Source: Arenicella chitinivorans (GTDB lineage: Bacteria; Pseudomonadota; Gammaproteobacteria; Arenicellales; Arenicellaceae). From it: a stretch of DNA of 64,000 nucleotides. This document shows, one piece after another, positions 10,489 through 49,944 of the stretch. Location: contig NZ_BMXA01000001.1 in assembly GCF_014651515.1 (NCBI RefSeq), positions 248,001 through 312,000 on the forward strand. Direction: 5' to 3'. The position numbers and the translations under genes are program-made. Under the pieces are notes generated by a model. It did no database searches. It worked only from the letters and a program-made list of their open reading frames with translations, and was not told the DNA's origin. Numbering within the stretch: position 1 is the first letter of the stretch; every line of letters starts with the position of its first letter.

Positions 10489-10490
10489 TT

Positions 10491-11282: not shown

Positions 11283-11290
11283 GCTCCACC

Positions 11291-32201: not shown

Positions 32202-33641
32202 ATGAATTTTAGTCAGTATGCTGATTGTGACGGGCTTACGTTAGCGCAGTCTGTAAAGGCCGGCGAGATCGATCCACAGCAATTGCTCGAGCTTGCGTAC
32301 CAACTTGTTGCTCAGCTCAATGAACCATTAAACGCCTTCGTGTCGGTGCAAACCGAATCAGCATCAGAGCAAAGTCGCAACCTAAATTATGCCGCTGAGT
32401 TTGCTGGCGTTCCATTGGCGATGAAGGATTGCGTGGGCTATGTCAACGGTGTGGCGCGCGACTTCGGCAGTCGCTTGGCTCGCGGTACCGTGATCGACTT
32501 CGATGCTGAGGTCGTCAAGCGCTACAAGGCGGCGGGCCTTATTCCCATGGGTACTACCAATGTGCCGGAGTTTTCATCATCGCTGACCACAGAGTCGCAA
32601 CTGCATGGGCCATGCCGTAATCCATGGGACGCAAGCCGTTCTAGCGGTGGCTCAGGTGGCGGCGGTGGGGCAGCAGTCGCAGCAGGCATCATTCCAATTG
32701 CGTATGGCAACGATGGCGCCGGTTCAATTCGTGTACCTGCGTCATGCAATGGGGTATTTGGCTTAAAGCCGAGTCGAGGGCGGGTTCCAACTGGTCCAAC
32801 GGACGGCGAGTTTTGGTATGGATTGATGACACATCATGCCATTACTCGTAGCGTGCGAGACAGCGCTCTCATGTTAGATATTAGTGGTGGCGTCGATACC
32901 GGCGCGCCGTATACTGCGCCGCCTAAGAAGCGTCCTTACTTACAAGAGGTGAGTGCAGCTCCGCAGCGCCTCAGAGTTGCGGTGTGCGATGGTCGCGCCC
33001 AAGGGATTAACGTGCACCCAGATTGCCTAGCCGCGCTGGATGAGACCACAACATTGCTGAGTGATCTTGGCCATGACGTGGTAAACGCCTCTGTTGATTA
33101 CAGCGCACAAGAGTTACATCACAACGTGACCACGATGTTAGCGGTCTCGATGGCGGCAGAGGTCCAGCAGACAGCCATCGACAGGTGCCGAGAAATTGAT
33201 CACACAACGGTCGAGCGTTGTAACCTCGCGCTTTACCATCGAGGCTTGGCGACAAGTGGCGTTGATTTATCTAAGGCGCTGCAATTTCGCACTGATTTAG
33301 GTCGGCGTTTGGGCGCTTTTATGCAGGACTGGGATGTCATGCTGACACCAACCTTAGCGCAACCGCCAATCAAGTTGGGGGTACTGGATGCGAACTCAGG
33401 CGATCTTGACGCGTATCTTGAGCAAATGTGGCGCTACTGTCCCTTCACGCCGTTGGCGAATGTGACAGGCGTACCCGCAATGAGCGTGCCACTGTGTTGG
33501 AACCCACGCAATTTACCGATCGGCATGATGTTTACCGCTGCGTATGGTGGTGAGGATACATTGTTCCGTTTAGCTGGCGAACTCGAGGCCGCCCGCCCGT
33601 GGCGTGATAAACATCCGCCGTTAAGCGCCTGGTCGGTGTAG
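32202..33641 (+). CDS. Amidase-signature hydrolase, NylA-like
   Basis: Cytoplasmic amidase of 479 residues; the characterised 6-aminohexanoate-cyclic-dimer hydrolase NylA has about 490. The Ser-cisSer-Lys triad is readable: K75 (AMKDC), S151 (SSGGSGGGGG) and S175 (GNDGAGSIRVP), with the usual 24-residue spacing between the two serines. Blocks such as TTNVPEF, CRNPWDASRSSGGS and VFGLKPSRGRVPTGP follow the NylA pattern closely. The region PIGMMFTAAYGGEDTLFRLAGELEAARPW closes the fold. Cyclic or linear amides are plausible substrates. It could also be a generic amidase; the neighbours at 40-50 kb make the NylA idea worth testing. Confidence 0.87.
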   Translation: MNFSQYADCDGLTLAQSVKAGEIDPQQLLELAYQLVAQLNEPLNAFVSVQTESASEQSRNLNYAAEFAGVPLAMKDCVGYVNGVARDFGSRLARGTVIDFDAEVVKRYKAAGLIPMGTTNVPEFSSSLTTESQLHGPCRNPWDASRSSGGSGGGGGAAVAAGIIPIAYGNDGAGSIRVPASCNGVFGLKPSRGRVPTGPTDGEFWYGLMTHHAITRSVRDSALMLDISGGVDTGAPYTAPPKKRPYLQEVSAAPQRLRVAVCDGRAQGINVHPDCLAALDETTTLLSDLGHDVVNASVDYSAQELHHNVTTMLAVSMAAEVQQTAIDRCREIDHTTVERCNLALYHRGLATSGVDLSKALQFRTDLGRRLGAFMQDWDVMLTPTLAQPPIKLGVLDANSGDLDAYLEQMWRYCPFTPLANVTGVPAMSVPLCWNPRNLPIGMMFTAAYGGEDTLFRLAGELEAARPWRDKHPPLSAWSV

Positions 33642-33752
33642 CAGTATGTGTGTAATGCCAATCCGATATCGGACCACCATATGCCTGCGCACCTGTGTCG
33701 TCGCGCGGAAAGTAATCGTTCGGTTTTCAACACTCCTTCAATTAGGTAAGAC

Positions 33753-34205
33753 ATGAATATCTTTAAAACTGTACTGAGTTATAAGCCTCGCTTGCACCAC
33801 GACCGTAGTCGAGGTTTCGTGTTTTCTGCGCTGCTGGTCGGCAGCCTTTTCTCCTCTATTAACGTCGCTAGCGTTGAGCCGAGTGAGTTACAAACGGCGT
33901 GGAGCGGTGCATGGACCGATGGGGAAGGCGGAGATATCTCGGTGCGGGTAGATGGCCAGTTTCTGACTGTTTCTGGTCGTGATGTCTACTCTGTATACCA
34001 GACTACGTGTTTGTTGTCAGCAGATCGTAAGCAGGCTAATTGCCAAGGTGATGGGGTTCAAATGCGCTCTGGGAACCGGTTTTTATACCGCAGTGAATGG
34101 ACATTGACGCCAGCGGGGATCAATGAAAAGTGGGTCGCCGATTTAGCCAGGGAGCAACTCCAAGGTGAGCTTACCTTTACGCGTGACTCTGAGGTATCGC
34201 GTTAA
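33753..34205 (+). CDS. Small exported protein of unknown function
   Basis: Protein of 150 residues with an N-terminal hydrophobic segment (about 24-41, FVFSALLVGSLFSSINVASV) preceded by basic residues, so it is probably exported or membrane-anchored. The mature part is a short beta-rich domain (AWSGAWTDGEGGDISVRVDG, with two Cys that could form a disulphide). I do not recognise a family. It starts a plausible operon with the porin, the small outer-membrane protein and the second PepSY protein, all on the plus strand. Confidence 0.65.
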   Translation: MNIFKTVLSYKPRLHHDRSRGFVFSALLVGSLFSSINVASVEPSELQTAWSGAWTDGEGGDISVRVDGQFLTVSGRDVYSVYQTTCLLSADRKQANCQGDGVQMRSGNRFLYRSEWTLTPAGINEKWVADLAREQLQGELTFTRDSEVSR

Positions 34206-34264
34206 GTGGTTGGGATTTGCAATCACTAATGATGATCAAGAACAATTTTTAACAGGTTTTCGCT

Positions 34265-35647: not shown

Positions 35648-35653
35648 AGATAA

Positions 35654-36370
35654 TTGATTGACTGCACAAGTCAACAAAGGTTTGGCCCCGCCTTGCTCCG
35701 CTATGTGTTGTTTTGCGCTGTTCTGCATTGGAATGATGTTTTAGCTGATGTGGAGACCAAACCAGCGTTCGAATTTGGTATTGAAAAGCATAGCAAGTAT
35801 GTCTCTCAAGCCAGAGACAACCTCGATAGCGGAGGTTTGATCTCAGTTCAAGCTGCGATGAATTGGCAACCGCTTAGCACTAGCATTTGGTTTGGCGATA
35901 GCGATAGCGGATCGTACCAAGAACTCAACTTCGGTATAACTCACGATTTTGAATTGGGTGTGGCGAACGTGTCTCTTGGGTATACACGCTTGATATTCCT
36001 GGACACAGGCGAAGCCGACAATGAGTTTAGCCTCAGCGTCAGCGCTGACCGTGATTTTTGGATTGTTCCCCGCGTCGACTACACCTATTCAACGCAAGCC
36101 GCAGCCGGCGTGGTCGAGCTGTTTCTAAGTTCTGAGTTTGATCTCGGCTCAGAGTCAATTAGTGTCGAGCCATATCTCATGCAGGGCTTCGATTTTGGCT
36201 TTGCAGGGCAGGAAAACTACTCACAGGCAGGGGTAAACGCGAACTGGACACTTTCTGAGGTCGCTAGTGTGTTCGCCAGCGCTAACCGCAGTTGGTTGGC
36301 TAACCCAAAGGGGCATGCACTACCAACCGGTCAAACTTGGATTACGGTAGGTTTGTCGGCGGAATTTTAG
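35654..36370 (+). CDS. Small outer-membrane beta-barrel protein, unknown
   Basis: Protein of 238 residues from a TTG start six bases after the porin stop; a GTG about 15 codons in is an alternative. A hydrophobic leader ends near DVLADVETKP. The body alternates polar and aromatic residues in amphipathic strands (FEFGIEKHSKYVSQ, LISVQAAMNWQPLSTSIWFG) and the C-terminus ends in SAEF, the outer-membrane insertion pattern. It resembles TorF-type putative porins but I cannot assign a family firmly. Confidence 0.7.
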   Translation: MIDCTSQQRFGPALLRYVLFCAVLHWNDVLADVETKPAFEFGIEKHSKYVSQARDNLDSGGLISVQAAMNWQPLSTSIWFGDSDSGSYQELNFGITHDFELGVANVSLGYTRLIFLDTGEADNEFSLSVSADRDFWIVPRVDYTYSTQAAAGVVELFLSSEFDLGSESISVEPYLMQGFDFGFAGQENYSQAGVNANWTLSEVASVFASANRSWLANPKGHALPTGQTWITVGLSAEF

Positions 36371-36424
36371 CGGCGTACTGCGGCAGCGAAAGTAATAAAT
36401 TGAATTTAGGTGATGAGGTTATCC

Positions 36425-37564: not shown

Positions 37565-37672
37565 AGTGTTATGGCGGCCGACAGAGTGTGTAAACCGACA
37601 CTGTGCAAAGCGTGAACTAAATCAGAGAGGTTGCTTGGTTACACAGTGTCGATGCGGCCGCTGTTTGGCGTG

Positions 37673-38536: not shown

Positions 38537-38601
38537 AGCGGTCTCCTTTAAGGCGGTAGTATATGTGAGAGGAATTAGGGTTGGCGAGTTGTTCCCGGTG
38601 C

Positions 38602-38637
38602 GCCCCGTGAATCAGGCTGTAGTCTGATGCACGGGGC
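38602..38637. other. Strong hairpin between POT transporter and surE
   Basis: Inverted repeat with 14-bp arms, GCCCCGTGAATCAG and CTGATGCACGGGGC, one mismatch, and an 8-nt loop. It lies downstream of the minus-strand transporter and upstream of surE. No T tract follows on either strand, so it could be a factor-dependent terminator, an mRNA-stabilising hairpin or a REP-type element. Confidence 0.5.
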
Positions 38638-38727
38638 CTTGGGGATTCAAGAGCTTGACGGGGCAATAGCACCTACTTGCGGCGCTATCAATATTATTAG
38701 TCGATGCTATTGAACAGTCAGTTCAAA

Positions 38728-40107
38728 TTATTTTTTCACTAATGCAGTCAATAAGGGGCCACGCAAAAACAGAATCAGTATGCCGCCGGAAGCGACAATT
38801 GCACCGTGCATTAACCAGAAAGCAGACGGGGCCATGACCTCATAAAACCGCCCTAGCCAGCCACTAAGTATTCCGCCAAAGAAGATGGCCAAGTAGTAAC
38901 AGCCAACCAGTGCCGAATTGACCGATTGTGGTGCAGAGCGAGAGACCAATGACAATATCGTGGGGCTGGCATATAAAAAGCCGACCGAGCAAATTAGATG
39001 GAAAATAACTGGGTAGATCAAGCTGATTTTCTCACTGCTGCCAGATAGTTCAGAGTAAGCAAGCGACAGACACGCGCTGCCGAACACAAGAAAACCAATT
39101 GATATTTTGTTTAAGTCACTGGGCTCGGTGTTGCGGTTTGACTGGCGTTTCCACAACCACAACACAACTGGCGCCAGTATTAACACCGCCAAGGTGTCGA
39201 TTGATTGAAACCAGCTGACGGGAATAGTTAGGTCAAATATTTCGCGGTCCACTCGGCCTTTTACCCAAATTGGGTACGTGTTCCAAACCTGAGTTTGGGC
39301 GGTCCAGAACAGTGCGGTGATGGCAAGCAGTAAGAGAATCAGGGCGATTCGTTTGCCGTCTCCGGGTTGCAGTGTGAGCGCTTGTTTGCCGGCGGATTTT
39401 GACTGAGAATCTTGCGGCAAATGGCGTCGACCTGAGATGTAGATGATCATACCAATCACCATTCCGATTCCGGCAACACCGAAGCCGTAATGCCAACCGT
39501 AGACTTCCCCCAGTGTGCCGCAAATCAGTGGCGCTGCGAAGGCACCAACAATAATAGCGATGGTGTAAATTGAATAGGCCGAGTCGCGGCGTTGATCGCC
39601 ATCTTTATATAACTGACCGACTTGAGCGGTGAGGTTGCCCTTAAGAAACCCAGAACCCAAAATCAGAAACAACAAGGCAAACAAAAATGCAGCTTCGATA
39701 GCCATCAGAAAATGGCCTATAGCCATTAGGATTGCACCGATAATAACGGCCTTGGTTCGGCCGATATAACGATCGCCAATAAACCCGCCTAAGACCGGAG
39801 TAAAGTACACTAAGCCGATGTATAGCCCCACGAGTTGTGTGGCGAGCGCTTGGGTCGATAGCGGACCAAATACGCTTTCTAGTGCGGCGCGAAAGCCGGA
39901 GAACGCAAAAACATTTTCAATCGTGCCCGGAAGTAACAGATAACTGGAAAGATAGAGTATTAATAGCGCTTGCATGCCATAGAACGAGAATCGTTCCCAC
40001 GCCTCAGCAAAAACAATGTAGCCCAAGCCCTTCGGGTGGCCTAAAAATGCAGAATCAGTGTCGCTTAGCTGATCGGCTGACATGGTCGTAGAGGCATCTA
40101 TACTCAT
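38728..40107 (-). CDS. POT/PTR-family proton-coupled peptide transporter
   Basis: Major-facilitator permease of about 459 residues (ATG at 40107; a GTG at 40164 would overlap the next gene). Signature blocks are visible: AEAWERFSFYGMQALLILYL (ExxERFxYYG motif), GGFIGDRYIGRTKAVIIGAI and FLKGNLTAQVGQLY. POT proteins import di- and tripeptides and peptide-like drugs with protons. It sits 25 bp after the NylB-like hydrolase on the same strand. Import of short linear amides that the hydrolase then splits is an attractive inference. Confidence 0.93.
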   Translation of the reverse strand: MSIDASTTMSADQLSDTDSAFLGHPKGLGYIVFAEAWERFSFYGMQALLILYLSSYLLLPGTIENVFAFSGFRAALESVFGPLSTQALATQLVGLYIGLVYFTPVLGGFIGDRYIGRTKAVIIGAILMAIGHFLMAIEAAFLFALLFLILGSGFLKGNLTAQVGQLYKDGDQRRDSAYSIYTIAIIVGAFAAPLICGTLGEVYGWHYGFGVAGIGMVIGMIIYISGRRHLPQDSQSKSAGKQALTLQPGDGKRIALILLLLAITALFWTAQTQVWNTYPIWVKGRVDREIFDLTIPVSWFQSIDTLAVLILAPVVLWLWKRQSNRNTEPSDLNKISIGFLVFGSACLSLAYSELSGSSEKISLIYPVIFHLICSVGFLYASPTILSLVSRSAPQSVNSALVGCYYLAIFFGGILSGWLGRFYEVMAPSAFWLMHGAIVASGGILILFLRGPLLTALVKK

Positions 40108-40132
40108 AATTATTCCGGGTTGTTGCGCTCGA

Positions 40133-41332
40133 TTATCGCTGGCAGTAAAAGTCGGTAGCGGCACTAAAGAATTCGTTGTCGATTATTTGTTCTGTGTTCA
40201 TCGGTTTAGGTCGCGCGCTCCACACTACGATAACAATATTCTTCTTTGGGTTAATATAAATACGTTGTCCAAAAATTCCGCGCGCACTGAATGCACCGTC
40301 GTTGAATGAGCCTTGCTGATCAGCGATCGCCCACCACATGTAACCGTAAGGAATTACTGTGTCACCGATTTTGAACGGGGTTGTTGCTTGTTTTACCCAA
40401 CCTTCAGGCAGCAACCTTTCGCCATTGACGATGCCATCGTTCATCATAAAAAGTCCGAAGCGGCCGTAGTCCCGCAGCGTAGCAGTGATTCCGCTCCCAG
40501 CTATTTCGAGGCCGTCTGGCGACTCTAGCCACCAATGGCTATCCGACTCCATACCGAGCTTTGACCACAGGGTTTCACTCAGGTAGTCAGCTAGGTATTT
40601 GCCGGTGGCTGCTTTGAGGAGTGCGCCAACCACGTGAGTTTCTCCGGTGCTGTAATTCCATACGCAGCCAGGTTTCGCTACTTGCGGTAAGGTCGCCATG
40701 TAGCGAAGGATGGCGCCAGGCTGCTGTGCAATTTGCAGCTCGAGTACTTCTCTTCTTTCAGAAAGCGGGTTGGTGTGGTCTTCATTCCAACGCGCACCAG
40801 ATGTCATTTGCAGTAGCTGCTCAATGGTGACTTTATCGTAAGTGCTGTTCACCAGCTCAGGTAAGTAATCGGTAAGTGGATCATTAACACTCTTAATGTA
40901 GCCTTGTTTTATGGCGACGCCGACTAAGGTAGTGCTAATCGATTTTGCCATAGACATGGACATCCAGCGACTCTTCTCGTTGATGCCGTGCTGATAGCGT
41001 TCAAGAATGATTTGGCTGTCTTTCAAAATTAATAGGCCGGTTACTCGATTACAAGCAATGTATTCGTCGATGGTGTAGTCACGATTATGTGAGCTAAACT
41101 GAGCGTTTTCGGAGTGATCTTTGTGCTCTACTAGAGGAGCAATTTTTGGCCCCTTAGCGATGCAGCGGGTTGGAAACAAATGCTCTGTACTGCCGAACGT
41201 TTTGACCTGAATCTCTGCAGGAAGTTCCCCAGCATAAGCTAGGCGAACAAACTCATCGTTGTCTATCTTCTGGCCGCGGCTTTGGGATAAAAATAAGTTA
41301 TCAGCCGGCCGGGTGTTTTTCTGCATAGTCAT
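40133..41332 (-). CDS. Serine hydrolase of the class C beta-lactamase fold, NylB-like
   Basis: Penicillin-recognising serine hydrolase of 399 residues; 6-aminohexanoate-dimer hydrolase NylB has 392. No signal peptide is visible, as in NylB, so it should act in the cytoplasm. The catalytic SxxK is S127-MA-K130 within the SMSMAKSIS segment and the general-base Tyr is Y227 in NYSTGETH; the third region is GIFGQRIYINP. Other shared features are LTDYLPELVNSTYD and the MTSGARWNED segment. The class also includes esterases and D-aminopeptidases, so amide specificity is inferred from neighbours: a POT transporter 25 bp downstream and the aminotransferase and NylC-like genes nearby. Confidence 0.85.
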   Translation of the reverse strand: MTMQKNTRPADNLFLSQSRGQKIDNDEFVRLAYAGELPAEIQVKTFGSTEHLFPTRCIAKGPKIAPLVEHKDHSENAQFSSHNRDYTIDEYIACNRVTGLLILKDSQIILERYQHGINEKSRWMSMSMAKSISTTLVGVAIKQGYIKSVNDPLTDYLPELVNSTYDKVTIEQLLQMTSGARWNEDHTNPLSERREVLELQIAQQPGAILRYMATLPQVAKPGCVWNYSTGETHVVGALLKAATGKYLADYLSETLWSKLGMESDSHWWLESPDGLEIAGSGITATLRDYGRFGLFMMNDGIVNGERLLPEGWVKQATTPFKIGDTVIPYGYMWWAIADQQGSFNDGAFSARGIFGQRIYINPKKNIVIVVWSARPKPMNTEQIIDNEFFSAATDFYCQR

Positions 41333-41617
41333 GTTTGGGCTGGGTAGCTTGGTTCGTTGTTAGTCAGCAGGCCTTTTGGTTGCTGCATAAATGATTAAAT
41401 TCAGTATATGAATCAAGTGATTGGTAAGGAAGTTGCCAACAGAGTCGACGTCGGTGCGCCAATCACACCACTGATGCGAGTGGTGATATGCAAACCTTAA
41501 TGGCGTGTTGCGCGCGGGACACCAGCGCAGTCGGCATTGGCATCTTCATGGCATTTTGGCGCCACGGTATACTGAACCAACTAACGAATACTAATACTTA
41601 AGTCAGAGGATTCCACA

Positions 41618-42913
41618 ATGAAACTTGATGCTCATTGGATGCCATTTACGGCGAATAAAACGTTTAAACAGGATCCAATATTAATGGAGTCCTCGAGTGG
41701 CATGCATGTGACGACCGAAGCCGGTCAGACTATGATCGATATGACGGCTGGGCTATGGTGCACTAACTTAGGCCACAGTCGCGAGCGCGTTGCCAAGGCA
41801 ATGTATGAATCGGCAAAAACGCTAGGTTACGTGTCTTCGTTTAACCTTGGGCACCGCGCATCATTTGAGCTTGCCGAGCGTTTGACTGATTTGTCTCCAG
41901 GAAACCTTGACCATGTGTTTTTTAGTAATTCCGGTTCAGAAGCGATTGATACGGCACTCAAAATAGCGATGGCTTATCACGCGGCCAAGGGGCAGTCTGG
42001 ACGCAAAATGTTTATTGCTCGAGAACGTGCTTACCATGGCGTGAATCTTGGCGGAACGGCGGTTGGTGGCTTAGTCAACAATACGCGTAATTTTGGTCGA
42101 TGGGGGTCGGTTGCTCATTTACCTCACACACTCGATCATGCTAACAACGCGTTTTCTCGTGGCTTGCCGAAAACAGGTGTCGAGAAAGCGCAAGCCCTAA
42201 ACGACTTGATCGCCTTACATGGTGCAGAGAACATAGCGGCTGTGATGGTAGAGCCAATCGCCGGTGCTGGTGGTGTGCTGCCGCCGCCGGTAGGGTACTT
42301 AAAACAGCTGCGAAAAATTTGTGACGAGCATGATATCTTGCTGATCTTTGATGAAGTGGTGACCGGCTTTGGGCGCACAGGATCGTTCACTGCCTCTATA
42401 GAGTTTGATGTTATACCCGACATTTACACTTCCGCTAAAGGCTTGACCAGTGGCGCGGTTCCAATGGGCGCCACCTTTTGTAAAGACTTTATCTACGACG
42501 CAGTTGTGAATTCGGCTGAGGGCATCGAATTTTGGCATGGCTACACTTACTCTGCGCATCCAATTGCCTGCGCGGCGGCGAGCGCTTGCTTGGATATTTA
42601 TCAGGAAGAATCCTTGTTTACGCGAGTTAATGAAGGCATTGGTGCTTATTTTGAGGAAGCACTACACAGCTTGAATGACTTGCCGCATGTGATCGATATT
42701 CGTAACTACGGTTTATTGGGTGCAATCGAATTCCAGCCGCAATCAGATGGTTTACCAATGGGATCGCGAGTGTATAAAAAGGCCATGCAAAAGGGCGTGA
42801 TGGTGCGCGGTGCAGGCGACAGCATTATTTTATCCCCACCGCTTATTATCGAGCGCAGTCATATTGATGAGTTTGTTGAGAAAACTCGATTAGCAGCGGC
42901 GGAAATTGCATAG
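41618..42913 (+). CDS. Omega-amino acid:pyruvate aminotransferase (class III, BauA/NylD-like)
   Basis: PLP-dependent class III aminotransferase of 431 residues. The start LDAHWMPFTANKTFKQDP matches beta-alanine:pyruvate and omega-amino acid aminotransferases. The cofactor site is clear: SGSEAIDTALKIA, LIFDEVVTG (D245) and the Schiff-base Lys K274 in TSAKGLTSG. These enzymes move the terminal amino group of omega-amino acids to pyruvate, giving a semialdehyde; the nylon-oligomer enzyme NylD does this on 6-aminohexanoate. Beta-alanine, GABA, 5-aminovalerate or 6-aminohexanoate are all possible. A Shine-Dalgarno CAGAGGA precedes the ATG. Confidence 0.93.
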   Translation: MKLDAHWMPFTANKTFKQDPILMESSSGMHVTTEAGQTMIDMTAGLWCTNLGHSRERVAKAMYESAKTLGYVSSFNLGHRASFELAERLTDLSPGNLDHVFFSNSGSEAIDTALKIAMAYHAAKGQSGRKMFIARERAYHGVNLGGTAVGGLVNNTRNFGRWGSVAHLPHTLDHANNAFSRGLPKTGVEKAQALNDLIALHGAENIAAVMVEPIAGAGGVLPPPVGYLKQLRKICDEHDILLIFDEVVTGFGRTGSFTASIEFDVIPDIYTSAKGLTSGAVPMGATFCKDFIYDAVVNSAEGIEFWHGYTYSAHPIACAAASACLDIYQEESLFTRVNEGIGAYFEEALHSLNDLPHVIDIRNYGLLGAIEFQPQSDGLPMGSRVYKKAMQKGVMVRGAGDSIILSPPLIIERSHIDEFVEKTRLAAAEIA

Positions 42914-43018: not shown

Positions 43019-43103
43019 TTCAATTACCCCCCCAGCAATTGGTGATTCAACTAAGGGAGTTGGAGCGCCAGTGCGTAGACAGTGTTCGCTATGTGACTCG
43101 GTA

Positions 43104-43829
43104 TTAGCTTGCGCGGTCAATCTTATCTTGCATCATCTTAGCAATCGTTTGCGCGTTTGGCTCTTGGGTTTTGTTTAAGCCCTTAATGACTCCTTCCAAG
43201 TCGGTCAGGTCACGGCTTTGCCCTAGTCGTTCAATGCCTTCCATTTCTGACACCGTGAATCGAAACGCCAAGACACCTTGGCTGAACTGTTCGAGTAAGC
43301 TCGGGTCAGTTTTGTCTATATGCCATGGGTTATCATTATCGCGCTCCATGTGATCGATTGTCTTGGCCAATACCTCAAGTGTTTGCTGGTGGTCAGTTAT
43401 GGCGCTGAACTGCCCCCTAAGTTGAACCGCAACATAACTCCATGTTGGTATTTTAGGTTCCATTGTGTACCAACGCGGCGACACATAGGCGTCGGGCCCC
43501 TGCAACAACGCAATGGCGTGCGCGCCAGCGTGAATAGCCTCGCAGTGTGGGTTGCGTTTAGCGATATGACCGATAAATTCGTATTGAGTCTTGCTTCGAG
43601 TTGTGGCCCCACCTTGCTCTTGTTGACCTATGTAAATCAACGGCGTGGCAGTCACCTGCAGTAAGTCGTTGAAGCTTGAGAACAGGTGCGCGAAAGGGTG
43701 GGCTTGTACGTAGCTAATAATTTCCTTGTGTTCGGAAAAATCAAAATGCTCAGGTATGAACATATGGGTGCCCGCGTCATCAAGCGAGCGCGCTAGTATT
43801 TTTCCAGATATTTTGTTTGAGTCTGCCAC
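43104..43829 (-). CDS. PaiB-family FMN-binding regulator/flavoprotein
   Basis: Protein of about 241 residues from a GTG at 43829 with a good ribosome site (TAGGAGAAA); an in-frame start at 43931 has none. Typical PaiB segments are FIPEHFDFSEHKEIISYVQAHPFA, the GHIAKRNPH stretch, PDAYVSPRWYTMEPKIPTWSY and LEQFSQGVLAFRFTVSEMEGIERLGQ. The family binds FMN in a split-barrel fold; Bacillus PaiB represses sporulation and protease genes, while others may be enzymes. It is divergent from the LysR regulator gene. Confidence 0.88.
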   Translation of the reverse strand: MADSNKISGKILARSLDDAGTHMFIPEHFDFSEHKEIISYVQAHPFAHLFSSFNDLLQVTATPLIYIGQQEQGGATTRSKTQYEFIGHIAKRNPHCEAIHAGAHAIALLQGPDAYVSPRWYTMEPKIPTWSYVAVQLRGQFSAITDHQQTLEVLAKTIDHMERDNDNPWHIDKTDPSLLEQFSQGVLAFRFTVSEMEGIERLGQSRDLTDLEGVIKGLNKTQEPNAQTIAKMMQDKIDRAS

Positions 43830-44536
43830 TGAGTTTCTCCTATGTACCATGAGATAGTGCCATGAAGCCGAGCGATGCACACAATGTAGTGGTGTGCTGT
43901 TGAGGTGAACTATAGCTGAGTCGGTCGGCATCGACTGTTGTTAAAAATAGGGTTGCTGGTGATGTTTTATCACCTATCGCACTGAACTCTTAACCTGATT
44001 GGGAGAGCCAACTGTTCTAGTATTTCCGCCGTACTTCGCCGAGTATGGTGGTATCTAAGCTAATCGCCATTGCCAGCACTCCACATGACTGTTGCAAGAC
44101 GTAACTACGTGGCGAGCCTCTTCAATCCAGCCCGTTCGTGGTTGTGGGCAGTTGAGAATGGGCTGTTCTGAAAATCATTTGGTTTTAGTCTGCGGGACAA
44201 CCTAGCAAGATTTAATTCACTTAAATTGACTATGAACTTAAATTGACTATGAATAGGAACACGTATCTTTTCAAACAAGTTTCTGATTTGCTCAGGAATT
44301 TCGGCTATTCGACAACTCAATGAGGGCACGTATACTCAGTTTGGGTCAATCTAGTGATTTATGCTTGAGGCAGTAGTGGGCTAGCACTCGGTACTCAAAC
44401 CTATCGTTGAACACGCGTTATGATTACTGTAACCTAATTAAAAACAGGAACACAAAGCGTACCCTCAAGCTGGGTCGGTTGTTTCTTACCCAGCTTCACT
44501 TTATGCCAGCGAGTTACACATTTTCAAGAGAATTAC
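43830..44536. other. Long divergent intergenic region with a 17-bp tandem repeat
   Basis: Seven hundred bases between the PaiB-like gene and the LysR-type gene hold no convincing coding region. A 17-bp unit, ACTTAAATTGACTATGA, is repeated exactly twice in tandem at 44219-44252. A 74-codon open frame on the minus strand at 44105-44329 covers it but has no ribosome site or recognisable domain. Promoters for both flanking genes must lie here. Confidence 0.5.
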
Positions 44537-45508
44537 ATGAGCTCAGATGCTAAGTATTACGAACTATCGAAACGGATTCCTTCGCGAAAATCGATTCCGC
44601 CTTTTGAATCGTTGCGTGCATTTGATGCGGTAGCTCGCTTAGGTGGAATTCGCAAGGCTGCACATGCTTTGTTACGTAACCATGCGGTGGTTAGTCGGCA
44701 TTTGAAAGCGGTTGAAGAATGGACCGGCTGTGCGCTGATTGACCGAACACCTGGCGGTGTCGTATTGACTGAAGAGGGTCAAATTTATCACCTTCAAATA
44801 ACTCAGGCACTGGATCTGATTTCTGAATCGACTATCGCGTTAATGAAGCGCTGTTCTGACGACTCACTACAAGTTTGGTGCATGTCTGGGTTTGCACTGC
44901 ATTGGATGGCGCGTCACCTCAGGGCATTTGAAAATGCCAATCCAGGTGTGCATTTAGAGCTACGATCAACCGGCGAAGAACCTGATTTTAGTCGTCACGA
45001 AGCGGATGTGAATATTCGACTTTATCGGGCTAATGAGAAGTCATCAAGCCTGCCGCCAGGCATGAAAAGTCAGCGAATTGCCAAGCCGCACATTATTCCG
45101 GTTGCAAGCCCTGAGTTTCTTGCTGATTGTGGCGATATTCGAGTGCCTGAAGATTTGCTTAAACATCAATTGCTGCGCGAAGATAGTTTTGGCAACTGGC
45201 AGCATTGGTTTCAAGAAAATGACGTCGATGACGTGGATGAACTAGATGGCGTTAAATTATGGGATGGCCATATGACGCTTGCTGCAGCGCGACATGGCCG
45301 AGGTATTGCGTTAACCAATAATTTGATCGCGGTGAATGATATCGCCAGTGGACGGTTGGTCGAAATTGGCGCAGACAATGACCTGTTCAAACCGGTATCA
45401 CTCGGCTCATATCATTTTATTGCCCGTGCTGACCGATGGGATGTGCCGTCGATATCGCGTTTTCGGAATTGGTTAGTATCTACTTTACAAAGCGAGTTTA
45501 AAGACTAA
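44537..45508 (+). CDS. LysR-family regulator (GcvA-like)
   Basis: Transcription factor of 323 residues. The winged HTH lies at about residues 22-82 (PPFESLRAFDAVARLGGIRKAAHALLRNHAVVSRHLKAVEEWTG region), and the LysR effector domain follows from about 110, with PGVHLELRST and HEADVNIRLYR. The GcvA-type subgroup commonly controls amino-acid or glutarate catabolism (for example GcdR). It is placed between the aminotransferase and the NylC-like gene and is the best candidate regulator for this cluster. Confidence 0.9.
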   Translation: MSSDAKYYELSKRIPSRKSIPPFESLRAFDAVARLGGIRKAAHALLRNHAVVSRHLKAVEEWTGCALIDRTPGGVVLTEEGQIYHLQITQALDLISESTIALMKRCSDDSLQVWCMSGFALHWMARHLRAFENANPGVHLELRSTGEEPDFSRHEADVNIRLYRANEKSSSLPPGMKSQRIAKPHIIPVASPEFLADCGDIRVPEDLLKHQLLREDSFGNWQHWFQENDVDDVDELDGVKLWDGHMTLAAARHGRGIALTNNLIAVNDIASGRLVEIGADNDLFKPVSLGSYHFIARADRWDVPSISRFRNWLVSTLQSEFKD

Positions 45509-45694
45509 ATAGTTGGTTGCCTGGCGTGTGCAAGCGATCAGCTTGCGTGCTGGCAAGTCTCGTCTTTTTGGCGCGCGGCCACCGCTTGGGTGGTGATGTT
45601 CGCGCACCACGGACCACTCAATTGGCTTCTCAAGTGCAGTCGTGACTGCTGCTACACTGTCTACACCATTCTAAGATCACTGCCATTTATATCT

Positions 45695-47095
45695 ATGCGC
45701 GCCATCACTTTGAGTTTGACCAAGAACGCCTTATTCGCATCGTCACTAGTGTCGTTTGTATTCGCTTCGACGAATCTACAGGCGGCTAGTCAAGACAGCT
45801 TAGTGCCGACCGTCAACATGGATAGCGGCGCATCCTTGGAGTTCGATTGGCCGGGTATTCGAGTCGGAACCGCTAGCTATGAAGAAGGCCCAACTGGCGT
45901 CACTGTCTTCCATTTTGACAAAAAGGCCAAGGTGGCCATGGATGTTCGAGGAGGCGGGCCAGGCACGGTTAACGCGCCTTATGTTGAGCTCGGGTATGAC
46001 GTTGCTGAGCTAGATTCAATCGTTGTGGCTGGCGGCTCGTGGTACGGTTTGGAAGCTACTACAGCGGTTGCCACGGCGATGATGGACGACGGACTGCGAG
46101 ACGGAGATGCATTTTCATTAACGCCATCTGTGGCGATGTCTTTAGGGTCTATTATTTTTGATTTCGGCAGTCGACGCTTGAACGAAATTTATCCCGACAA
46201 AAAGCTTGCTCAAGCCGCCTATCGAGCGGCTGTCCCCGGTCAATTTCCATTGGGTGCAACCGGAGCTGGACGGCATGCCATGACCGGTGGATTCTTTGGC
46301 TGCGCAGTGCACTCCGGGCAGGGTGGCGCGTTTAAGCAGATTGGTGATCTAAAGATAGCCGCGTTTTCGGTGGTCAACGCCTTCGGTGCTGTTACCGATC
46401 GTGATGGCAAGGTAGACGCATGTTATACCGATAAAGGCCTTGAGAGAGATCTGCAAATCAAAGATATGTTTGCAAAGTTTGAATCTAAGTTTAGTGAACA
46501 AACTCTCGAACGAGCTGACAACAGCAATAAGAACACCACGATCAGCGTTCTGGTGGTGAATCAGAAACTAGAGCCAGCCTTACTAAAACGCTTGGCAGTG
46601 CAAGTTCACACGTCGATGTCACGCAGCTTACAACCTTACGCAACTCTGTTTGATGGTGACGTATTCTACGCAGTGTCGACCGAAGAAATTGACGACAAAG
46701 AGTTGAGCCCGGTGGATTTAGGTGTGATTGCGTCTGAAGTAATGTGGGATGCGTTATTAGCGGCGGCACCGGCGCAACAACCTAAGCACGTGCAAGCAAA
46801 CCCAAACGTAGCGTTGTCATCGGCAGACATGAATGCGATTGCGGGCGAGTACCAATTTAGCGACAAGGTGAAACTCAAGGTGTTTGTGCGTAAAGGTAAA
46901 TTGTTTGCACGCGCGACGGGCTCAAAAAAAGTGTTTGCAATTGCCACTGACCAAGACAAAGAACTACTGCCGGTAGCAAAAAACCAATTTGTGGTTCCAT
47001 CTCGGGTGCCGCTCACATTGGATTTTAGTAATGCAGAAAAAGTCATTTTGAACCCAGGTCATTGGCAGCAAACAGGCGTTTTAATCAGCAACTAA
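45695..47095 (+). CDS. Exported NylC-type N-terminal-threonine hydrolase with extra C-terminal domain
   Basis: P1-family (DmpA/NylC) hydrolase of 466 residues; the ATG at 45695 gives a proper signal peptide (about 1-31, ending LQAA) whereas the frame open from 45590 does not. NylC hallmarks are FDWPGIRVGTASYEEGPTG, IIFDFGSRRLNEIYPDKK, the self-cleavage pair N280/T281 in KNTTISVLVVN, N228, D320 and D322 (FDGD), and LGVIASEVMWDALLAA. I could not place the Lys reported for NylC catalysis. NylC opens internal amide bonds of nylon-6 oligomers. Residues about 372-466 form an added domain (IAGEYQFSDKVKLKVFVRKG), resembling DUF3471, which NylC lacks. Confidence 0.88.
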   Translation: MRAITLSLTKNALFASSLVSFVFASTNLQAASQDSLVPTVNMDSGASLEFDWPGIRVGTASYEEGPTGVTVFHFDKKAKVAMDVRGGGPGTVNAPYVELGYDVAELDSIVVAGGSWYGLEATTAVATAMMDDGLRDGDAFSLTPSVAMSLGSIIFDFGSRRLNEIYPDKKLAQAAYRAAVPGQFPLGATGAGRHAMTGGFFGCAVHSGQGGAFKQIGDLKIAAFSVVNAFGAVTDRDGKVDACYTDKGLERDLQIKDMFAKFESKFSEQTLERADNSNKNTTISVLVVNQKLEPALLKRLAVQVHTSMSRSLQPYATLFDGDVFYAVSTEEIDDKELSPVDLGVIASEVMWDALLAAAPAQQPKHVQANPNVALSSADMNAIAGEYQFSDKVKLKVFVRKGKLFARATGSKKVFAIATDQDKELLPVAKNQFVVPSRVPLTLDFSNAEKVILNPGHWQQTGVLISN

Positions 47096-47207
47096 TGGCT
47101 CTTGTGTGGCTACCGGTTTGCTACCGCGACACTAATTTGCTGATTTCAATTTACCAAAATTGTCAGCCAGCCGGCAACAAAAATAGGCTTTGTGCCTAGA
47201 GGACATC

Positions 47208-48632
47208 ATGAAGCAGTTACCCTCTTTAGATAAACATTATATAAACGGTCAATGGGTGTCGAGTCAGTCTACGGCGACCTTTGACGTGGTCAGCCCGGTG
47301 ACTGCACAGGTGGTTGATCAACTCTCACTGGGTGGCAGCGCGGATGTTGACTCAGCTGTCGATGCGGCTAAGAATGCATTTCCGCTATTCGCCGCCACCA
47401 CTCAAGCGCAGCGAGTCGCGATGTTTGATCGTTTGATTGACGCTTACGAAGACTCGCTTGAGGATATGGCGCACGCCATTACCACTGAAATGGGCGCGCC
47501 AATTACGGTATCGCAACAGAAGCAGACTATGGTTGGTTTGGGCTTGCTAAAGAGCATGCGCCAAACCCTGATGGACTTTTCAACAACCGAGAAAATTGGT
47601 GATGTGCTAGTACAAAAACTGCCGATTGGTGTGGCCGGCATGATCACACCGTGGAACTGGCCGATGAATCAGGTGGTGTGTAAAGTATCTGCCGCTTTAG
47701 CGGCCGGTTGCAGCATGGTGTTAAAACCGAGCGAATACGCGCCTTACAGTGCGGCACTATTTGCCGACATAGTGGACCGTGCAGAGTTACCACCAGGAGT
47801 ATTTAATCTAGTTCACGGTGGTGCGCAAGCAGGTGAAGCATTGGCTTCACACCGTGATGTGGATGTTATATCAATTACTGGTTCGGTTCGAGCTGGCGTA
47901 GCCGTTGCCCAAGCGGCAGCACCAACCGTTAAACGAGTTACGCAAGAATTGGGCGGTAAATCGCCTTTTATTGTTTTGCCTGATGCCGATCTTTCTGCAG
48001 CGGCAAACTCGTGCGTCGCCCGACTTATGTTGAATACGGGGCAATCCTGCAATGCACCAACCAGGCTAATTGTGCCAGAGCAACACAAGGCAGAGACTCT
48101 GGCAGCAATTAAAACCGCTATCAGTAACTATCAGGTCGGTGATCCATTTGAGCAGTCCACCGATATTGGTCCGGTGGTGAACAAACTGCAATTTGATCGC
48201 GTTAATGCCTATATCCAAACCGGAATCGATGAGGGAGCCGAGGTGCTGTGTGGTGGTGTGTCCGATCACGATGCAAACGACGGATTCTTTGTCAAACCGA
48301 CGTGCTTTTATGATGTTGACGAGAGCATGACGGTGGCGCAGGAAGAAATTTTCGGCCCGGTGTTAGTCGTCTTGTCTTATTCCGATATTGAGCACGCGAT
48401 ACAAATCGCCAATGCGTCCCATTTTGGCTTGTCGGCCTATGTGTATGGTCACAACAATGATGACACCATGCACGTGGCAACCAAACTGGAAGCAGGTATG
48501 GTGCACGTTAATGATGCGATTGCCACCATGGATGCGCCATTCGGTGGTTTTAAGCAGTCAGGTAATGGTCGAGAGCGCGGTGTGTTTGGCTTAGAAGAAT
48601 ATTTAGAGGTCAAGTCTATTTATGTTGGCTAA
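47208..48632 (+). CDS. NAD(P)-dependent aldehyde dehydrogenase (NylE/semialdehyde type)
   Basis: Non-acylating aldehyde dehydrogenase of 474 residues; the ATG at 47208 follows AGAGGA. Motifs: ITPWNWPMNQVVCKVSAALAAG, TGSVRAGVAVAQ (cofactor), the Glu in QELGGKSPF and the catalytic Cys in NTGQSCNAPTR, ending EEYLEVKSIYVG. In order after the aminotransferase and before the CoA-transferase it would oxidise an omega-semialdehyde (for example malonate-, succinate-, glutarate- or adipate-semialdehyde) to a dicarboxylate. In the nylon pathway NylE does this with adipate semialdehyde. Substrate is inferred from context. Confidence 0.9.
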   Translation: MKQLPSLDKHYINGQWVSSQSTATFDVVSPVTAQVVDQLSLGGSADVDSAVDAAKNAFPLFAATTQAQRVAMFDRLIDAYEDSLEDMAHAITTEMGAPITVSQQKQTMVGLGLLKSMRQTLMDFSTTEKIGDVLVQKLPIGVAGMITPWNWPMNQVVCKVSAALAAGCSMVLKPSEYAPYSAALFADIVDRAELPPGVFNLVHGGAQAGEALASHRDVDVISITGSVRAGVAVAQAAAPTVKRVTQELGGKSPFIVLPDADLSAAANSCVARLMLNTGQSCNAPTRLIVPEQHKAETLAAIKTAISNYQVGDPFEQSTDIGPVVNKLQFDRVNAYIQTGIDEGAEVLCGGVSDHDANDGFFVKPTCFYDVDESMTVAQEEIFGPVLVVLSYSDIEHAIQIANASHFGLSAYVYGHNNDDTMHVATKLEAGMVHVNDAIATMDAPFGGFKQSGNGRERGVFGLEEYLEVKSIYVG

Positions 48633-48768
48633 AATGGTGCTCAATACAGCGCTAGTGCAACCCTAGAGTTTCGATCTGATTCCAAGTTTGCTTAAAACGG
48701 GTCCGGTTTATACAGAGTCTCTAAAAGGCTCTTTTGAGCACCTAGTTCCTTAGCAGCGGAGAGATGGC

Positions 48769-49944
48769 ATGATTAAGCATGGCGCGTTGTCGCACCTTAA
48801 GGTTTTAGACTTGTCGAGAGTATTAGCTGGGCCGTGGGCTGGGCAAGTGCTGGCTGATTTTGGTGCCGACGTGATTAAGGTTGAGCAGCCAGAAAAAGGA
48901 GACGACACTCGGCATTGGGCGCCGCCGTATATGCCTGATTCAAGTGGTGCCGATACGGCAGAGAGCGCGTACTACCTATGTGCAAATCGAGGCAAGAGAT
49001 CGATTTGTGTGGATATTCGTAGTGCCGAAGGCCAAGCGGTGTTGCATGCGCTGGTGCAGGACAGCGATGTCGTGATCGAAAACTTTAAGGCCGGTCATTT
49101 GGCAAATTATCACCTCGACTACGACACCTTATCTAATATAAATCCGGCTCTGATTTATTGCTCGATCACTGGATTTGGTCAAACCGGACCGTATAGTGAA
49201 CGACCCGGCTACGACTTTTTAATTCAAGCCATGAGCGGGCTTATGAGTGTGACTGGAGAGCCTGATGGTCCACCACAGAAAGTCGGCGTTGCGGTAACAG
49301 ATGTACTAACCGGGTTGTATGCGGTAATCGGGGTATTGGCGGCTTTGTCCGAGCGTTCGATCTCCGGATTGGGGCAACATATCGATTTGTCCTTATTCGA
49401 TGTAGCCGTCGCATCCATGGCAAACCAAGCGAGCAATTACCTCGTTGGCGGAATGACTCCGCAAGCGATGGGCAATGCGCATCCAAATATCGTGCCGTAT
49501 CAGAGCTTTGAAACGCAACAAGGACACTGTGTGGTAGCTGTCGGCAATGACTCGCAGTTCGCGCGGTTTTGTGTGGTTGTTGGGCGCCCAGAGTGGTGCG
49601 ACGATGAGCGCTTTAAATCGAATAGTCAGCGGGTCAAGAATCGAAAAGTGTTAGTTGTTCTAATTGCCGAAGAGATGCGGCGTGACACGCGAGATAACTG
49701 GTTGGCAAAATTTCAAAAAGCAGATGTACCAGCCGCGCCGATAAATAACCTACAAGATGTTTTCAACGACCCTCAAATTCTTGCTCGGCAAATGAAGATC
49801 AACGTGCCGCATCCGAGCAATCCAGACCTCGAGTTAGTCGGCAATCCACTTAAGTTTTCTCGCACGCCGGTTAGCTATCATCGACCGCCTCCCGAGCTGG
49901 GGGAGCATACTGAGGAAATATTCAATAAACTCAAAGGCACCTAG
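48769..49944 (+). CDS. Class III CoA-transferase (CaiB/BaiF family)
   Basis: CoA-transferase of 391 residues. Family blocks: LDLSRVLAGPWAGQVLADFGADVIKVE, the catalytic Asp in PGYDFLIQAMSGLMSVTGEPDG, and HPNIVPYQSFETQQG. Among CaiB-like proteins the pattern resembles succinyl-CoA:glutarate CoA-transferase, which pairs with glutaryl-CoA dehydrogenase (found here at 18199). It would activate the dicarboxylate made by the preceding aldehyde dehydrogenase (136 bp upstream), opening it to beta-oxidation or to GcdH. Glutarate, adipate or another diacid fit. Confidence 0.9.
   Translation: MIKHGALSHLKVLDLSRVLAGPWAGQVLADFGADVIKVEQPEKGDDTRHWAPPYMPDSSGADTAESAYYLCANRGKRSICVDIRSAEGQAVLHALVQDSDVVIENFKAGHLANYHLDYDTLSNINPALIYCSITGFGQTGPYSERPGYDFLIQAMSGLMSVTGEPDGPPQKVGVAVTDVLTGLYAVIGVLAALSERSISGLGQHIDLSLFDVAVASMANQASNYLVGGMTPQAMGNAHPNIVPYQSFETQQGHCVVAVGNDSQFARFCVVVGRPEWCDDERFKSNSQRVKNRKVLVVLIAEEMRRDTRDNWLAKFQKADVPAAPINNLQDVFNDPQILARQMKINVPHPSNPDLELVGNPLKFSRTPVSYHRPPPELGEHTEEIFNKLKGT

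What the first reader, a model, noticed from the sequence alone, without database searches (positions are those of the whole stretch)
32202..49944. A full set of nylon-oligomer-type genes (NylA, B, C, D, E-like plus CoA-transferase) in one region
The segment contains an amidase with the NylA triad spacing (32202), a NylB-like SxxK serine hydrolase with no export signal (40133), an omega-amino acid:pyruvate aminotransferase (41618), a clear NylC-family self-cleaving hydrolase (45695), an aldehyde dehydrogenase (47208) and a CoA-transferase (48769), with a POT transporter beside the NylB-like gene. In the known Arthrobacter pathway, NylA/B/C hydrolyse cyclic, linear and internal amides, NylD transaminates 6-aminohexanoate, NylE oxidises the semialdehyde, and a CoA ligase or transferase feeds beta-oxidation. 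Finding all roles in one chromosomal neighbourhood of a gammaproteobacterium suggests a natural route for omega-amino acid oligoamides. What is seen are the genes and motifs; joint function is inferred. The amidase lies about 8 kb from the rest.
Basis: partly seen in the sequence, partly recalled or inferred. Interest (0 to 1): 0.9.

Follow-up and report, generated by a model that had tools for sequence, protein, structure and literature searches.

The report
Nylonase-like genes sharing one regulatory switch
A 33 kb stretch of a bacterial chromosome carries relatives of nylon-degrading enzymes together with uptake and catabolic genes under what looks like one shared DNA switch; the downstream genes point to five-carbon amine building blocks, as in some natural iron-binding molecules, rather than to nylon itself.

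Summary
The NylC-like protein belongs to a sister clade of NylC: 25 of 25 rows keep the autocleavage pair, 0 of 25 keep presumed catalytic Lys189; 23 of 24 have signal-like N-termini. The 'NylB' is closer to PIB-1 (47%) than to NylB (30%) and lacks NylB's residues 170, 181 and 266. An inverted repeat, GGTG-N9-CACC, has six sites in the window's 33 kb block, all intergenic and all kept in the sister species; in 15 held-out loci 27 of 28 sites are intergenic. The putative regulon spans 16.8-49.9 kb and includes a TonB receptor, exported amidohydrolases, POT transporter, NylA-like amidase, omega-aminotransferase, CoA-transferase and a second glutaryl-CoA dehydrogenase; gcdH lies in 6 of 15 held-out loci, directly beside nylC in 5. 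This predicts a C5 product (cadaverine or 5-aminovalerate to glutarate), not adipate. Best guess at substrate: a natural oligoamide, perhaps desferrioxamine-type siderophores. Regulon and C5 route are well supported by sequence; the substrate is inferred and nothing was assayed.

The parts
16772..18139 (-). CoA-acylating-type aldehyde dehydrogenase, downstream of gcdH
   Evidence: PF00171; best NCBIfam matches PRK13805/SauS, below cut-off
18199..19389 (-). gcdH, extra glutaryl-CoA dehydrogenase
   Evidence: six best PDB matches are glutaryl-CoA dehydrogenase; second copy in own genome at 79%
19548..19564 (.). operator GGTG-N9-CACC between gcdH and the beta-helix gene
19689..20639 (+). right-handed beta-helix (NosD-like) protein
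   Evidence: PF13229; relatives in 6 of 15 held-out loci
20829..24110 (+). amidohydrolase with WD40-like propeller 1, signal-like N-terminus
   Evidence: PF07676+PF01979; hydropathy; 49-54% relatives in 11 of 15 held-out loci
24152..27433 (+). amidohydrolase with WD40-like propeller 2, signal-like N-terminus
   Evidence: PF07676+PF01979; hydropathy; about 55% to the G017 copy of amidohydrolase 1
27443..27459 (.). operator upstream of the TonB receptor (69 bp)
27520..29655 (+). TonB-dependent receptor of the module
   Evidence: PF00593; 46-62% in 6 of 6 named relatives; at least 44% in 12 of 15 held-out loci
30211..31335 (-). PepSY_TM protein (pepsy1), related to 7abw; operator upstream; no orthologue seen in other module loci except G017
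   Evidence: PF03929; only PDB match 7abw, 261 bits; held-out PepSY_TM proteins are not its orthologues
31410..31426 (.). operator between pepsy1 and gnat-amidase
31523..32155 (+). GNAT acetyltransferase, upstream of amidase
   Evidence: PF13523
32202..33641 (+). NylA-like amidase, no clear export signal
   Evidence: 35.7% to NylA over 462 aa; Lys72/Ser150/Ser174 kept, position 316 is Leu; hydropathy 1.25
38728..40164 (-). POT-family proton-coupled peptide transporter
   Evidence: PF00854, TIGR00924 over cut-off; conserved
40133..41332 (-). NylB/PIB-1-like serine hydrolase, no export signal seen
   Evidence: 47% to PIB-1, 30% to NylB; Ser-Lys-Tyr kept; hydropathy
41453..41469 (.). operator between nylB-POT and aptA
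41618..42913 (+). aptA, omega-amino acid aminotransferase
   Evidence: NF052567 over cut-off
43104..43931 (-). FMN_bind_2 protein (PaiB family by recall)
   Evidence: PF04299
43958..43974 (.). operator upstream of the FMN_bind_2 gene, in the intergenic region shared with lysR
44537..45508 (+). LysR regulator (GcvA-like), presumed to bind the operator
   Evidence: PF00126+PF03466; best NCBIfam GcvA 218 bits, below cut-off; 48-51% in five relatives
45592..45608 (.). operator 95 bp upstream of the nylC ATG
45695..47095 (+). nylC-like P1/S58 self-cleaving hydrolase with signal-like N-terminus and C-terminal extension
   Evidence: 43% to NylC in the MAFFT alignment; residue map; tree; N-terminus
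47190..48632 (+). aldehyde dehydrogenase, downstream of nylC
   Evidence: PF00171; none of the 25 NCBIfam models shown (of 44) is over its cut-off
48769..49944 (+). CoA-transferase, succinate-glutarate-like
   Evidence: best NCBIfam NF052585 513 bits, below cut-off 750; PDB SUGCT 346 bits, third after two less telling names

Best explanation
The block 16.8-49.9 kb is a catabolic regulon for a natural oligoamide built from a five-carbon diamine or amino acid. Proposed order: the TonB receptor brings the substrate into the periplasm; the exported self-cleaving NylC-like hydrolase and two exported amidohydrolases cut its amide bonds (if the substrate is a siderophore, the PepSY protein first removes the iron); the POT symporter imports the small pieces; the cytosolic NylB/PIB-1-like hydrolase and the NylA-like amidase finish hydrolysis; the omega-aminotransferase and aldehyde dehydrogenase turn the released amine into a dicarboxylate; the CoA-transferase and glutaryl-CoA dehydrogenase feed crotonyl-CoA into central metabolism. 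The LysR protein binds GGTG-N9-CACC and switches the set on. Shown: gene families, co-occurrence, operator, residue conservation, extra gcdH. Inferred: compartments (signal-like N-termini only), LysR as the binder, order of steps, C5 monomer. Most speculative: that the substrate is an N-hydroxy-N-succinyl-cadaverine siderophore (desferrioxamine, bisucaberin) used as carbon and nitrogen source; I give that about 0.3.
For: Operator: 14 of 25 promoter regions chosen beforehand, at most 3 for any such dyad in 30 shuffles; 7 in the window, 0 of 100 shuffles reach 7; 6 in the block, all intergenic, all kept in G017. Held-out: 27 of 28 sites intergenic in 15 loci (11 kb intergenic vs 117 kb genic by my own gene calls), four control patterns 0-2 intergenic hits. 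Co-occurrence: TonB, NylB-like, POT, LysR in 6 of 6 named relatives; in 15 held-out loci TonB 12, POT 11, amidohydrolase 11, class III aminotransferase 7, gcdH 6 (5 beside nylC), NylB-like 5, LysR 4, CoA-transferase 3. C5 route: GcdH identity, extra copy, CoA-transferase, polyamine-type aminotransferases and GabT in relatives, an SSADH-like gene beside the L018 aminotransferase and SSADH-like genes in 3 of 15 held-out loci. Siderophore: pepsy1 matches 7abw, which PMC12424826 uses when modelling the FoxB-like reductase HiuB (passages); bacteria can grow on desferrioxamine B by cutting its amide bonds, apo form only (PMC10866069, PMC11800396, passages); N-hydroxy-N-succinyl cadaverine is the common monomer (PMC6270104, passages).
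Against: No activity, binding or expression data. The TonB receptor is not of the FhuA/FoxA type (37-40 bits to those models; best NCBIfam model TIGR01783 at 134 bits is below its cut-off of 223.5; FoxA and FhuA chains about 30 bits, best PDB match the pesticin receptor at 107 bits). No Fur-like site found. PepSY_TM proteins occur in 7 of 15 held-out loci, but resemble the window's second PepSY (22-28%), not pepsy1, and have no operator near their starts, so they lend the siderophore reading little. gcdH, amidohydrolases and pepsy1 had no tblastn match in the six named relatives' loci. PepSY_TM proteins have other roles too (PMC13038864, search listing). The CoA-transferase is below the NCBIfam cut-off. 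Genome-wide, the operator is not in excess of a reversed control in four of seven carrier genomes; only its placement is telling. The seventh window site (52808) lies outside the block. Several loci lack members, L035 nearly all. Loci are related to each other, about eight lineages in all.
Confidence: 0.65

Rival explanations
1. It is a nylon-6-type oligomer pathway: NylA/B/C cut 6-aminohexanoate oligomers, the monomer goes to adipate and adipyl-CoA.
For: NylA and NylC are the best PDB matches of two of the hydrolases; AptA-type aminotransferase.
Against: NylB's 170/181/266 residues absent, Lys189 absent in 25 of 25, an extra glutaryl-CoA dehydrogenase in the block, gcdH in 6 of 15 held-out loci, directly beside nylC in 5.
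Confidence: 0.07
2. Catabolism of unusual peptides (beta-, gamma- or D-amino acid peptides), comparable to microcystin degradation, where (as I recall) MlrB is a beta-lactamase-fold hydrolase and MlrD a POT-type transporter.
For: POT next to a beta-lactamase-fold hydrolase; M24 peptidase in L022; NylC relatives beside oligopeptide-type ABC transporters in actinobacteria and beside an M81 peptidase in Variovorax whose only NCBIfam match is MlrC, far below cut-off.
Against: Does not explain gcdH, CoA-transferase or omega-aminotransferase.
Confidence: 0.17
3. Catabolism of acylated polyamines (putrescine, cadaverine or spermidine conjugates) other than siderophores.
For: Polyamine-type aminotransferases and GabT in relatives.
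Against: A TonB receptor is unusual for small conjugates; several exported hydrolases suggest a larger substrate (inference).
Confidence: 0.17
4. Neighbouring but functionally unrelated genes; the repeat is a general regulator's site.
For: 93 exact sites genome-wide against 63 for the reversed control; no genome-wide excess in four of seven carrier genomes.
Against: 6 sites against 0.08 expected for the block's intergenic length; six of the 87 sites outside the block were inspected and lie inside ORFs; held-out test.
Confidence: 0.04

Closest known systems
NylC (6-aminohexanoate oligomer endohydrolase, peptidase family S58/P1)
   Same: Sequence (43% identity in the MAFFT alignment), Asn266/Thr267 autocleavage pair, Asn219, Asp306, Asp308; best fold match of a low-confidence model
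   Different: Signal-like N-terminus, about 100-residue C-terminal extension, Lys189 replaced, separate supported clade
PIB-1 (Pseudomonas metal-dependent beta-lactamase-like protein, 8RLJ) and NylB
   Same: PF00144 family, Ser-Lys-Tyr catalytic residues
   Different: 47% to PIB-1, 30% to NylB; none of NylB's 170/181/266 residues; beside POT, TonB and LysR genes
NylA (6-aminohexanoate cyclic dimer hydrolase)
   Same: Amidase family, Lys-Ser-Ser triad, 35.7% identity
   Different: Position 316 is Leu; linked here only in two species of this genus; the Sinorhizobium amidase beside a NylC-like gene is a different one (29%)
Caprolactam cluster of Pseudomonas jessenii (PMC6061476, passages)
   Same: omega-aminotransferase, semialdehyde dehydrogenase, oxalate-CoA-transferase-like gene
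   Different: ATP-dependent caprolactamase there; no NylC homologue there; adipate rather than glutarate
hiuABC / FoxB xenosiderophore systems (PMC12424826, passages)
   Same: TonB receptor with a PepSY protein
   Different: Fur-regulated iron uptake with an FhuA-related receptor there; here LysR, hydrolases and carbon catabolism

Membership tests
NylC-type hydrolase (S58/P1) | Autocleavage pair Asn266/Thr267 | tested here: met
   25 of 25 rows of the new clade; cleavage itself not assayed
NylC-type hydrolase (S58/P1) | Asn219, Asp306, Asp308 | tested here: met
   25 of 25
NylC-type hydrolase (S58/P1) | Presumed catalytic Lys189 | tested here: not met
   0 of 25; 7 of 7 in NylC, actinobacterial and Variovorax rows; alignment less certain here
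NylC-type hydrolase (S58/P1) | Groups with NylC apart from other P1 peptidases | tested here: met
   sister clade, 97/94 support for the join, 96/98 for the new clade; 5 other P1 rows only, some long branches
NylC-type hydrolase (S58/P1) | Endo-hydrolysis of 6-aminohexanoate oligomers | not testable with these tools
   needs assay
NylB 6-aminohexanoate dimer hydrolase | Ser112/Lys115/Tyr215 | tested here: met
   window and 5 relatives
NylB 6-aminohexanoate dimer hydrolase | Tyr170, Asp181, Asn266 (recalled as activity determinants) | tested here: not met
   His, gap, Gly in window and 5 relatives
NylB 6-aminohexanoate dimer hydrolase | Closest characterised relative is NylB | tested here: not met
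   PIB-1 349 bits vs NylB 109 bits
NylA cyclic dimer hydrolase | Lys72/Ser150/Ser174 triad | tested here: met
NylA cyclic dimer hydrolase | Cys316 | tested here: not met
   Leu; importance recalled only
Glutaryl-CoA dehydrogenase | Closest solved relatives are GCDH | tested here: met
   7 best PDB rows 591-635 bits, 6 of them named glutaryl-CoA dehydrogenase
Succinate-glutarate CoA-transferase | NCBIfam NF052585 cut-off | tested here: not met
   512.7 vs 750 bits; still its best match
Omega-aminotransferase AptA | NCBIfam NF052567 cut-off | tested here: met
   593.7 vs 500 bits
FoxB-type siderophore reductase | Sequence relation of pepsy1 to 7abw (FoxB by recall) | tested here: met
   261 bits, two stretches
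FoxB-type siderophore reductase | pepsy1 orthologues recur in the module | tested here: not met
   held-out PepSY_TM proteins match pepsy2 at 52-65 bits, pepsy1 at 15-30 bits
FoxB-type siderophore reductase | Heme ligation and ferric siderophore reduction | not tested
   histidines not mapped, no assay
FhuA/FoxA hydroxamate receptor | Match to FoxA/FhuA models | tested here: not met
   37 and 40 bits, far below cut-offs

The most novel reading that the evidence does not exclude
The nylon-hydrolase families exist in nature as parts of a siderophore-eating system: cyclic and linear oligomers of N-hydroxy-N-succinyl-cadaverine (bisucaberin, nocardamine, desferrioxamine B) resemble cyclic and linear nylon oligomers in architecture, and this LysR regulon imports, de-irons, hydrolyses and burns them as carbon and nitrogen through glutaryl-CoA.
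Probability: 0.3. Interest if true: 0.92.

Novelty: new variant of a known kind. Interest (0 to 1): 0.82.

Why it matters
Nylon hydrolases are studied as plastic-recycling enzymes, yet their natural job is unclear. A conserved putative regulon with transporters and a C5 catabolic arm gives them a cellular setting, adds a clade of about 25 relatives of NylC of which 23 of 24 examined look exported, and offers candidate genes for desferrioxamine-degrading activities known from growth experiments, for which the passages I read name no gene. It is directly testable with commercial desferrioxamine and environmental bacteria.

Tried and rejected
Fur regulation: no site with up to 3 mismatches to a recalled consensus in the window. 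Microcystin-type reading: kept as a rival, does not explain gcdH. Finding an empty site in sister species: not resolved (the G007 contig ends too early). NylB-like protein as a marker on plasmids: too broad, 398 plasmid records match; three NylB contexts (H2, H3, H11) and two NylC contexts (H26, H27) were opened. No POT or module TonB receptor was found by tblastn in H2, H3, H26, H27; H11 has two annotated TonB receptors but no annotated POT and was not searched by tblastn. TonB receptor on plasmids: three records at 28-34%. AlphaFold2 model of the NylC-like protein: mean pLDDT 59.8, so only the fold match to NylC is used; the C-terminal extension stays unidentified. Operator sites elsewhere in the genome: six of the 87 outside the block inspected, all inside ORFs. 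Actinobacterial NylC loci: seven of twelve scanned for the operator, one hit each in three, taken as chance. Literature: searches list no paper on this cluster; subscription papers are mostly not held, and Pierwola 2004 was not available.
Full report
OBSERVATION. The nylC start is most likely ATG 45695, which gives a signal-peptide-like N-terminus; this rests on hydropathy, not on a signal-peptide predictor.

WHAT THE THREE HYDROLASES ARE. The S58 protein matches NylC best among solved structures (190 bits; Nyl12 183, Nyl50 94, ThnT 71). Its model is poor (mean pLDDT 59.8) but finds NylC first. In a residue map on 32 rows, Asn219, Asn266, Thr267, Asp306 and Asp308 are kept in 25 of 25 rows of the new clade and 7 of 7 others; Lys189, presumed catalytic in NylC (PMC6021441, passages), is kept in 0 of 25 versus 7 of 7. 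The alignment near 189 is less certain than at the other places. All 25 carry a C-terminal extension, 101-126 residues except 52 in L021, which a contig end cuts; the six other complete rows have 2-3 residues and the NylC fragment ends there. A hydrophobic N-terminal stretch after a possible start codon is present in 23 of 24 rows examined; the Sinorhizobium row L035 lacks it. The tree puts the clade (96/98) beside NylC plus its actinobacterial and Variovorax kin (95/86), with some long branches. The NylB-like protein is 47% identical to PIB-1 over 355 positions and 30% to NylB over 273; catalytic Ser, Lys, Tyr are kept; NylB positions 170, 181, 266 read His, gap, Gly. That 8RLJ is PIB-1 comes from PMC13269358 (parts 1-3 of 5 of the text and a passage of its reference list). 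The amidase is 35.7% identical to NylA, with the triad kept and Cys316 not.

CONSERVATION OF THE SET. One scan of the genome collection (84,980 species), with two short peptide patterns, gave 19 loci: 7 close relatives at 53-59%, one of them cut by a contig end, and 12 actinobacterial NylC relatives. In the 6 with full flanks (Kordiimonas, a Kordiimonadaceae MAG, three Steroidobacter/Peristeroidobacter, Sphingomonas formosensis) the TonB receptor, NylB-like, POT and LysR genes all lie within 10 kb (6 of 6), and a class III aminotransferase in 5 of 6. The aminotransferases of L018, L020 and L022 are not AptA orthologues but of a polyamine type (NF005682 over cut-off; nearest PDB names of the L020 one include putrescine and polyamine transaminases); L022 adds GabT (TIGR00700 over cut-off). 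The gene beside the L018 aminotransferase, cut by the locus end, has SSADH as best match, below cut-off. A Sinorhizobium plasmid (L035) has a nylC-like gene (50%) next to an amidase but none of the others within 31 kb. In the window's own family only G000 and G017, of 21 genomes, have nylC at E 1e-20. Their NylB-like and TonB genes score 786-924 and 1567-1608 bits, while the best in other genomes reach 262 and 194 bits.

THE BLOCK. G000 and G017 are colinear over window 16772-49934 (83-94% nucleotide identity, with gaps; hits over 150 bp) and not beyond, as far as fetched. The block carries an extra glutaryl-CoA dehydrogenase: at E 1e-90 G000 has 2 copies, G017 3, G015 2, 13 genomes 1 and 5 none. 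It also carries a second CoA-transferase of this kind (66% to the other copy in G000).

THE OPERATOR. In 25 promoter regions of module genes, picked before any motif was known, GGTG-N9-CACC occurs in 14; 30 mononucleotide shuffles gave at most 3 for any such dyad. The window has 7 sites, expected 0.86, 0 of 100 shuffles reach 7. Six lie in the block, all intergenic, 35-167 bp from the starts of gcdH and the beta-helix gene, tonB, pepsy1 and gnat-amidase, nylB and aptA, the FMN gene, and nylC; the seventh (52808) lies outside the block. All six are kept in G017. Across the window and 7 relatives, 25 of 30 sites in module spans are intergenic (8.5 kb intergenic, 86.9 kb genic, my own gene calls). 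Genome-wide G000 has 93 sites in 4.03 Mb, against 63 for the reversed pattern, so 0.77 are expected in the block and 0.08 in its intergenic part. In seven other carrier genomes a slightly narrower pattern is above the reversed control in three (45/15, 42/22, 39/23) and below it in four (50/71, 48/59, 55/63, 61/71): the pattern is too loose to count genome-wide, and the evidence is its placement. Six of the 87 sites outside the block were inspected and lie inside ORFs.

HELD-OUT TEST. A profile of the clade was run on 397 genomes of the family of the Sphingomonas formosensis genome (the tool names no family; presumably Sphingomonadaceae); 16 matched, one being L022's own. The 15 new loci were fetched, two of them short because of contig ends (L159, L164). 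TonB (at least 44%) is present in 12 of 15, POT in 11 (two partial), the WD40-amidohydrolase in 11, class III aminotransferase in 7, PepSY_TM in 7, gcdH in 6 (directly beside nylC in 5; in L170 beyond POT and TonB), beta-helix in 6, NylB-like in 5 (two of them only 43-44%), LysR in 4, and CoA-transferase, GabT, SSADH and FMN protein in 3 each. L158 and L162 have only 26-30% TonB matches. PepSY_TM was checked by Pfam in 2 of the 7, the rest by clustering and blastp; these proteins match the window's second PepSY (22-28%), not pepsy1, and have no operator within 400 bp of their starts. Of 28 operator sites in the module spans 27 are intergenic, every locus has at least one, and four control patterns gave 0-2 intergenic hits. 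The 15 loci form about five lineages by the tree (two groups of five near relatives), so the counts are not independent. This test also shows that the window's amidohydrolases and beta-helix gene recur in the module.

READING. The shared operator and recurring partners suggest one regulon. The order TonB, exported hydrolases, POT, cytosolic hydrolases, aminotransferase, dehydrogenase, CoA-transferase, GcdH reads as import, cutting, uptake and combustion of an oligoamide whose amine part becomes glutarate: cadaverine or 5-aminovalerate, not 6-aminohexanoate.

WHICH SUBSTRATE. Natural oligoamides of cadaverine with nylon-like spacing include the N-hydroxy-N-succinyl-cadaverine siderophores (PMC6270104, passages). 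Bacteria can grow on desferrioxamine B by hydrolysing its amide bonds, only in the iron-free form (PMC10866069 and PMC11800396, passages). A periplasmic FoxB-like protein would supply that form; the window's pepsy1 has one PDB match, 7abw (261 bits), which PMC12424826 cites for heme-ligating histidines when modelling HiuB, a protein it likens to FoxB (passages). That 7abw is FoxB itself is my recollection. Against: the receptor is not FoxA/FhuA-like, no Fur-like site was found, pepsy1 orthologues do not recur in the module, and PepSY proteins have several roles. I therefore hold the siderophore reading at about 0.3.

KNOWN OR NOT. Searches list no paper describing this cluster; the library lacks most subscription journals. 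PMC10858056 (passages) and PMC6061476 (passages) discuss nylonases and caprolactam but not this arrangement in what I saw. The families are known; the regulon and the exported NylC clade appear new.

Noticed in passing
L023-L034 (actinobacterial loci), e.g. L024:3545-12091: The characterised NylC nests with a chromosomal Leucobacter protein (99/95). These genes sit in a conserved gene order: regulator that looks LacI-type by eye, five-gene ABC transporter (one binding protein scanned: oligopeptide/nickel type), nylC, often an FMN_bind_2 gene, and a C45 proenzyme hydrolase (two scanned). This may be the home of the nylon enzyme.
   Followed up: partly
L037:1726-10679: Variovorax boronicumulans plasmid: two P1 peptidases around a peptide-type ABC transporter with an M81 peptidase downstream.
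   Followed up: partly
51287-52390: Fragments of a GH88-like gene that look, by eye, like a broken partial duplicate of the gene at 12248-15103, with near-identical C-terminal residues.
   Followed up: no
16-15103: Looks like a pectin/rhamnogalacturonan utilisation locus: TonB receptor, polygalacturonase-like, TRAP-type transporter, GH88/105-like, KduI/KduD-like and sugar kinase genes, named by eye, not searched.
   Followed up: no
G000:C3:357626-358567 and G017:C1:672260-673219: Second NylB/PIB-1-like paralogue (41%) elsewhere in both genomes that carry the module.
   Followed up: no
L157:6798-9175: An APH-family gene and a distant GabT-like gene (32%) between the FMN gene and nylC, with an operator site upstream.
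   Followed up: no
L159:188-937, L163:4939-5688, L164:3369-4490: A sulfatase-modifying-factor (FGE) domain protein next to the amidohydrolase in three loci (one scanned by Pfam).
   Followed up: no
33753-38536: Genes inside the block without an operator site: small hypothetical, Porin_O_P, an outer-membrane-like protein, second PepSY_TM and SurE; conserved in G017. Elsewhere only a 25% Porin_O_P match in L018 and weak PepSY_TM relatives (22-28%) in 7 of 15 held-out loci.
   Followed up: partly
52808-52824: A seventh GGTG-N9-CACC site, intergenic, about 150 bp upstream of the Na/phosphate-symporter-like gene at 52960 (named by eye), outside the module.
   Followed up: no
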